Source: Bifidobacterium breve
Lineage (GTDB): Bacteria; Actinomycetota; Thermoleophilia; Solirubrobacterales; Solirubrobacteraceae
Reading direction: 5' to 3'
DNA: 64,000 nucleotides
Assembly: GCA_945878865.1 (NCBI GenBank)
Contig: CAMCUD010000002.1
Coordinates: forward strand, 124,001 to 188,000
Shown: positions 34,210-34,756 of the stretch, piece after piece
Layout: each line of letters opens with the position of its first letter
How positions within the stretch are numbered: the first letter of the stretch is position 1
The notes under the pieces: model-generated
Seen by the model: the letters and a program-made list of their open reading frames with translations, nothing else
The model's database searches: none
Told to the model about the DNA's origin: nothing
Position numbers and translations under genes: made by a program

Positions 34210-34530
34210 TCAGTGGCCCGACGCGACCTTCAGCCCGCCGGCGCACGCGACGATCCCGAGGAGGAGCAGGGCGCGGACGGGATCCATGGCTTCGCCGAGC
34301 CACAGCCAGCCCGCCAGCGCGGTGCCGGCGGTGCCGATCGCGACCCAGACCGCGTACGCGGTGCCGATCGGCAGGTCGCGGACGGCGAGGCCGAGACAGG
34401 CCATGCTCGCGACGATCGCGCCGACGGTCAGCGCGGTGGGCAGCGGCCTGGTGAAGCCGTCCGTGGTGGACAGGCCGACCGCCCACCCGACCTCGAGCAG
34501 ACCGGCGATAATGAGGAACAGCCACGGCAT
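34210..34530 (-). CDS. sugE: SMR-family guanidinium exporter (SugE/Gdx)
   Basis: Encodes 106 residues in four membrane helices. N-terminal MPWLFLIIAGLLEVGWAVGL carries the essential Glu13, and GTAYAVWVAIGTAGTALAGW is the SMR signature helix 3. SugE-type members export guanidinium rather than broad drugs; the upstream guanidine-III riboswitch (34561-34603) supports this substrate directly. A strong AGGAGG ribosome site precedes the ATG by about 7 bases. Confidence 0.92.
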   Translation of the reverse strand: MPWLFLIIAGLLEVGWAVGLSTTDGFTRPLPTALTVGAIVASMACLGLAVRDLPIGTAYAVWVAIGTAGTALAGWLWLGEAMDPVRALLLLGIVACAGGLKVASGH

Positions 34531-34560
34531 GAGACGCCTCCTGACGACACGGGGTGCAGG

Positions 34561-34603
34561 TGTGCGTCGTCGTGCGTGACCGGGTACGGCGCTCCTCGTC
34601 CGG
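34561..34603 (-). ncRNA. Guanidine-III (ykkC-III) riboswitch
   Basis: On the minus strand the leader reads CCGGACGAGG, A, then GCGCCGTACCCGGTCA, then about 14 bases ending ACGACGC. As remembered, this matches the ykkC-III/guanidine-III consensus almost base for base through CCGG...CCGGTCA: the P1 helix pairs CCGG with CCGG and GCGCCGT pairs with the 3' ACGACGC (one A-C mismatch) as the pseudoknot. A TAAGGT -10 box lies at 34627-34632. The 3' strand GACGAC can instead pair with GTCGTC just before the AGGAGG of sugE, a plausible translational switch. Consensus comparison is from memory, the pairing is seen. Confidence 0.88.
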
Positions 34604-34683
34604 GCCGGGCGAACCCGGCAGCAACCACCTTAGAAGCTCGGCGGCGACCGTCGGCGCCGATCCGGCTACGATGGCGATTCGCT

Positions 34684-34756
34684 GCGGACGTAGCTCAGTT
34701 GGTAGAGCGTCGGCTTCCCAAGCCGAAGGTCGCGGGTTCGAGGCCCGTCGTCCGCT
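34684..34756 (+). tRNA. tRNA-Gly (anticodon CCC)
   Basis: 73 bases. Acceptor GCGGACG pairs with CGTCCGC (34749-34755); D stem GCTC/GAGC; anticodon stem TCGGC/GCCGA with loop TTCCCAA (anticodon CCC at 34717-34719); T stem GCGGG/CCCGT around TTCGAGG. CCA is not encoded. A TACGAT -10 box lies at 34667-34672. The 3' half, from the anticodon stem on, is duplicated at 42927-42974, marking it as an integration site. After integration the gene's 3' half was restored from the element. Confidence 0.96.

What the first reader, a model, noticed from the sequence alone, without database searches (positions are those of the whole stretch)
34561..34603. Guanidine-III riboswitch controlling a SugE/Gdx exporter
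The minus-strand leader of sugE contains the ykkC-III core (CCGGACGAGG-x-GCGCCGTACCCGGTCA) with a pseudoknot partner. Directly downstream, GACGAC of the pseudoknot strand can pair with GTCGTC adjoining the AGGAGG ribosome site, giving a simple translational on/off model. The exporter is therefore very likely a guanidinium transporter. One A-C mismatch in the pseudoknot is notable.
Basis: partly seen in the sequence, partly recalled or inferred. Interest (0 to 1): 0.7.

Follow-up and report, generated by a model that had tools for sequence, protein, structure and literature searches.

The report
Guanidine-III riboswitch before Gdx exporter

Summary
Window 34624-34561 (-) matches Rfam RF01763 (Guanidine-III) at 47.5 bits (gathering score 36, E 9.4e-7), the only hit in the genome. 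It ends 30 nt upstream of a 106-aa SMR protein carrying every Gdx residue checked (E13, W16, S42, Y59, W62). In the same class, 20 of 21 over-threshold aptamers lie directly before an SMR gene. It is an ordinary new member of a known family.

(1) The C-A mismatch (C34589/A34567; C15/A38 in T. fusca numbering) is the commonest state of that pair: 61 of 121 distinct aptamers, nearly universal outside Actinomycetia, yet C-G in the crystallised T. fusca RNA. Third-strand A10 occurs with C15-A38 (38/40) or A15-U38 (2/40), never with G38. The full-leader fold favours (96% vs 3%) the same strand pairing GCGUC between SD and AUG. Expression platforms differ between lineages, and no single one is proven here.

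The genome also carries a guanidine-I riboswitch elsewhere. Low to moderate interest; the conserved mismatch is the part worth a bench test.

The parts
34564..34603 (-). Guanidine-III aptamer core (H-type pseudoknot). P1: CCGG 34603-34600 with CCGG. P2: GCGCCGU 34592-34586 with ACGACGC 34570-34564
   Evidence: RF01763, 47.5 bits, E 9.4e-7; pairing as in T. fusca structure PDB 5NWQ (PMC5696562)
34604..34624 (-). Optional 5' hairpin of the Rfam model (GCCGG/CCGGC, extendable to GCCGGG-UUCG-CCCGGC)
   Evidence: included in the RF01763 match; folds as a hairpin
34589..34589 (-). C15 of the C15-A38 mismatch in P2
   Evidence: sequence; 61 of 121 distinct aptamers have C-A here
34567..34567 (-). A38 equivalent of the C15-A38 mismatch
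   Evidence: sequence
34543..34550 (-).
   Evidence: 8-pair duplex with P2 3' strand, -12.0 kcal/mol; about 3% of free ensemble
34537..34542 (-). Shine-Dalgarno AGGAGG
   Evidence: sequence, 6 nt before AUG
34533..34537 (-). GCGUC, overlapping the last G of the SD: predicted dominant OFF partner of the P2 3' strand
   Evidence: 96% pairing probability in the free ensemble; P2 3' strand to SD-AUG pairing 7.8 vs 2.1 expected from aptamer shuffles
34210..34530 (-). gdx/sugE, 106-aa small multidrug resistance protein of Gdx type
   Evidence: PF00893 87 bits; nearest solved structure Gdx-Clo 6wk5 E 6.8e-19; E13, W16, S42, Y59, W62 present

Best explanation
This is a guanidine-III (ykkC-III) riboswitch in the 5' leader of a Gdx-type guanidinium/H+ exporter gene, acting as an ON switch for translation. 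Without ligand the 3' strand of P2 (ACGACGC) is free to pair with complementary sequence around the ribosome site, most likely GCGUC between SD and AUG and alternatively GUGUCGUC just 5' of the SD, which hinders initiation. Guanidinium stabilises the pseudoknot and its P2 triplex, takes that strand back and exposes the SD, so the pump is made. The C15-A38 pair is a normal family variant and should not prevent binding. Shown here: aptamer identity, gene identity, their linkage across the class, the recurrence of the mismatch. Inferred: ligand binding, direction of switching, which anti-helix forms.
For: RF01763 hit over threshold with the whole model matched. Nucleotides of the ligand pocket described for T. 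fusca (C6, G7, G17; PMC5696562) are all present. Gdx residues including Gdx-specific W16 are present; the nearest solved protein is Gdx-Clo. 20 of 21 over-cutoff aptamers in the class directly precede an SMR gene. P2 3' strand complementarity to the RBS region is better than about 97% of dinucleotide shuffles; SD-AUG is unpaired 0.17 vs 0.35 with shuffled aptamers, shuffle rank 0.03. No terminator-like hairpin in the leader, which favours translation over termination. Published work describes guanidine-III as a translational ON switch.
Against: No binding, probing or reporter data for this RNA. Nearest-neighbour folding ignores the pseudoknot, and the SD opening cost differs little between the free and blocked-aptamer proxies (6.6 vs 6.1 kcal/mol). 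Anti-helix position is not conserved among relatives. The NCBIfam SugE equivalog model scores below its cut-off (97.8 vs 126), so the exporter is a divergent Gdx.
Confidence: 0.93

Rival explanations
1. Same aptamer and gene, but control is mainly through mRNA stability: the folded aptamer near the 5' end blocks RNase E scanning, with little role for a specific anti-SD helix.
For: This effect is reported for guanidine-III (Richards and Belasco 2021, as cited in PMC12186494). No single anti-SD helix is conserved across the family.
Against: In this leader the P2 3' strand is unusually complementary to the SD-AUG region. Whether this organism has RNase E was not checked.
Confidence: 0.25
2. The OFF state uses the 5' strand of the aptamer (CCGGACGA) pairing with UCGUCAGG, which includes the first GG of the SD, as appears likely in some relatives (L137 CUCGUCCGGAGG, L126 CUCGUCCG).
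For: Five-prime-strand complementarity is enriched in Thermoleophilia (mean -1.26 kcal/mol, p 0.03) and strongest in L137 and L126, p 0.01 each.
Against: For this window the 5'-strand duplex is weaker (-9.5 kcal/mol, shuffle p 0.28) than the 3'-strand duplex (-13.2, p 0.03).
Confidence: 0.15
3. The C-A mismatch makes this a decayed or non-binding aptamer.
For: One non-Watson-Crick pair in the P2 triplex next to the ligand core.
Against: C-A is the commonest state of this pair, in about ten phyla, mostly in front of intact SMR genes, and is kept even where P2 is lengthened to 9 pairs (L003, L132). The Rfam model marks it as a positively scoring pair.
Confidence: 0.03

Closest known systems
Guanidine-III (ykkC-III) riboswitch, Rfam RF01763; T. 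fusca structure 5NWQ
   Same: Same conserved core CCGGACGAGg..CGUACCCGG, same H-type pseudoknot, same position upstream of an SMR gene
   Different: C15-A38 instead of C15-G38; A11 in the third strand instead of U11; 3' strand one nt nearer (40- rather than 41-nt core)
Gdx-Clo (PDB 6wk5) and the E. coli SugE/Gdx subfamily of SMR transporters
   Same: Full-length alignment 1-104, all checked substrate-site residues identical
   Different: Divergent in sequence, below the NCBIfam SugE equivalog cut-off (97.8 vs 126 bits)
Guanidine-III platforms of Myxococcota
   Same: P2 3' strand complementary to GUCGUC/GCGUC around SD and AUG
   Different: There the GUC usually touches the AUG; here the GCGUC element ends two nt before it and a second element precedes the SD

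Membership tests
Guanidine-III riboswitch (RF01763) | Covariance-model score at or above gathering | tested here: met
   47.5 vs 36 bits
Guanidine-III riboswitch (RF01763) | Invariant core and ligand-pocket nucleotides (C6, G7, G17 and neighbours) | tested here: met
   Sequence against PMC5696562
Guanidine-III riboswitch (RF01763) | P1/P2 H-type pseudoknot pairing | tested here: met
   P1 4 of 4 pairs, P2 6 of 7; the seventh is the C-A found in 61 of 121 members
Guanidine-III riboswitch (RF01763) | Upstream of a guanidine-related gene | tested here: met
   SMR gene 30 nt downstream
Guanidine-III riboswitch (RF01763) | Binds guanidine and activates expression | not testable with these tools
   Needs in-line probing and a reporter
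Gdx (guanidinium exporter subtype of SMR) | SMR fold family | tested here: met
   PF00893, 87 bits vs 23.7
Gdx (guanidinium exporter subtype of SMR) | E13, S42, Y59, W62 and Gdx-specific W16 | tested here: met
   All present at the same numbers; roles from PMC7695847
E. coli-type SugE equivalog (NCBIfam NF008512) | Curated score cut-off of the equivalog model | tested here: not met
   97.8 vs 126 bits, though best of all NCBIfam SMR models; the model is narrow, so this argues against the name E. coli-type SugE rather than against Gdx
Gdx (guanidinium exporter subtype of SMR) | Guanidinium/H+ exchange | not testable with these tools
   Needs transport assay

The most novel reading that the evidence does not exclude
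In most lineages the guanidine-III aptamer keeps a non-Watson-Crick C15-A38 pair (perhaps a protonated A+-C wobble), coupled to third-strand base A10 or G10, as a working part of the P2 triplex. The only member crystallised in the literature found here (T. fusca, C15-G38-G10) would then show the minority version, and the mismatch may tune P2 stability or pH response so that the strand can switch.
Probability: 0.35. Interest if true: 0.45.

Novelty: new member of a known kind. Interest (0 to 1): 0.3.

Why it matters
It adds a firm gene-function assignment (guanidinium export) and a guanidine-III switch in Thermoleophilia (order Solirubrobacterales). More useful is that the mismatch turns out to be the family's usual state outside Actinomycetia, while structural work used a C-G member. 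That makes a simple experiment worthwhile: does C15-A38 behave as a protonated pair, and does it set the switch point?

Tried and rejected
A uniform family-wide anti-SD helix: per-sequence complementarity of the P2 3' strand to the whole linker was not enriched over dinucleotide shuffles (median p 0.47, 4% at or below 0.05), and later tests gave lineage-dependent answers. Coupling between base 38 and its would-be partner at -5: no clear pattern. Linker length as the reason for A38: holds within Actinomycetota (medians 33 vs about 15 nt) but not in Myxococcota or other phyla. Sigma-70 promoter and terminator scans of the leader: nothing. The guanidine-III validation paper and the RNase E paper were not held, so whether they already describe the C-A pair could not be checked; a full-text search for related terms found nothing on it.

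Full report
Check of the observation. The minus strand carries the core exactly as described. The Rfam scan gives Guanidine-III (RF01763) at 34624-34561 (-), 47.5 bits against a gathering score of 36, E 9.4e-7, over the full model. It is the only RF01763 match in the genome. P1 is CCGG with CCGG; P2 is GCGCCGU with ACGACGC and one C-A mismatch. By the published numbering (PMC5696562) the pocket bases C6, G7 and G17 are all present.

The gene. The 106-aa ORF 34530-34210 (-) is an SMR protein (PF00893, 87 bits). Its nearest solved relative is the guanidinium exporter Gdx-Clo (6wk5, E 6.8e-19), with EmrE entries much weaker. E13, W16, S42, Y59 and W62 are present. W16 is conserved in Gdx but glycine or alanine in the Qac subtype (PMC7695847). 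It is below the narrow NCBIfam SugE cut-off (97.8 vs 126 bits), so it is best called a divergent Gdx. The genome's only other SMR gene (L148) reads EVLAT where Gdx reads EVGWA, so it looks like the Qac type (by eye), and the one guanidine-III match of the genome is not near it.

Where it comes from. One genome the tool calls 'same order' (G390; its aptamer contig is 21387 bases, L125) matches the record JAFKLL010000045.1, a Solirubrobacterales MAG contig of the same length (L051). The window therefore most likely belongs to Solirubrobacterales, class Thermoleophilia (inference). The aptamer is patchy: 36 of 399 class genomes have a match, 21 over the cut-off, and the two congeners searched have none. 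Comparing coordinates between, 20 of the 21 over-cutoff aptamers (all but G112) lie directly upstream of an SMR gene.

The mismatch. At pair 15-38: C-A 61, C-G 34, U-G 12, U-A 8, G-C 4, A-U 2. By lineage (phyla assigned from record titles) C-A is found in 22 of 23 Myxococcota, all 4 Planctomycetota, 8 of 10 Pseudomonadota, 3 of 4 Acidobacteriota, single members of Deinococcota, Bdellovibrionota, Binatota and Chloroflexota, and the 6 Thermoleophilia of that set; C-G and U-G dominate only in the other Actinomycetota, which include the crystallised T. fusca RNA. Among wider class hits both A38 and G38 forms occur. The mismatch is kept even where P2 is extended to nine pairs (L003, L132). Third-strand base 10 is coupled to it: A10 goes with C15-A38 in 38 of 40 and with A15-U38 in two, never with G38; G10 goes with both. 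Collapsed by genus the association is 32:1 vs 15:18, Fisher p 4e-6, still confounded by descent. In the T. fusca structure these three positions form a base triple C15-G38-G10. So the mismatch is a family trait, plausibly a non-Watson-Crick pair inside the triplex; that it is protonated is conjecture. The window RNA itself has G10 and A11; that third-strand pair was seen only once in the sample.

The expression platform. For this leader the P2 3' strand has a better duplex with the RBS region than about 97% of shuffles, and with the aptamer free the SD-AUG stretch is less open than with shuffled aptamers (0.17 vs 0.35, shuffle rank 0.03). Among relatives the platform varies: GUC touches the start codon in 46 of 119 riboswitch genes against 23 of 706 other starts in the same loci (the sequences are related, so the Fisher p of 4e-26 is inflated) and 0 of 29 SMR genes without a riboswitch, but only 2 of 20 in Thermoleophilia. 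Some Thermoleophilia instead carry CUCGUCCGG(AGG), the complement of the aptamer 5' strand, overlapping the SD (L137) or just before it (L126).

Verdict. A real guanidine-III riboswitch, almost certainly an ON switch for a Gdx exporter: an ordinary new member. The conserved mismatch is the only part that might surprise a specialist, and whether it has already been reported could not be checked because the key papers were not held.

Noticed in passing
G000:C6:96971-97081 (-), locus L150:1611-1501 (-): The same genome has a guanidine-I riboswitch (77.9 bits vs 63) about 42 nt upstream of an isochorismatase-family cysteine hydrolase gene (L150:1458-847 -); a divergent arginase/agmatinase-family gene lies on the other strand. 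Two guanidine riboswitch classes in one genome.
   Followed up: partly
window 34192-32437 (-): gdx is followed on the same strand by ResA/CcmG-like, CcmH-like (by eye) and CcdA/DsbD-like genes; this arrangement was seen in no other fetched gdx locus (many loci hold only 1.5 kb of flank).
   Followed up: partly
window 34684-34756 (+): tRNA-Gly(CCC) lies divergently about 60 nt from the aptamer, so the leader promoter must sit in or beside this short gap; TAAGGT near 34632 is a possible -10.
   Followed up: no
L137, L126, L003, L132, L130 (leaders): In several Thermoleophilia a complement of the aptamer 5' strand (CUCGUCCGG, CUCAUCCGG or CUCGUC) overlaps or abuts the SD, which suggests an OFF state different from that in Myxococcota.
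   Followed up: partly
L022 (BNCN01000013.1, labelled Comamonas sp. KCTC 72670): Aptamer, leader and protein start are almost those of Myxococcus (L048), so the record is probably mislabelled or contaminated.
   Followed up: no
L024, L053, L058-L060, L078, L081, L094, L100, L108, L110, L122 (mycobacteria): Guanidine-III aptamers stand before a non-SMR protein whose start contains ..NAEGAWAQQAEA.. or similar; its function was not examined.
   Followed up: no
L150:1540-2961: Similar peptide-like stretches (..VNQRSP....NVGSPG..) recur in translations of both strands, suggesting a dispersed intergenic repeat.
   Followed up: no
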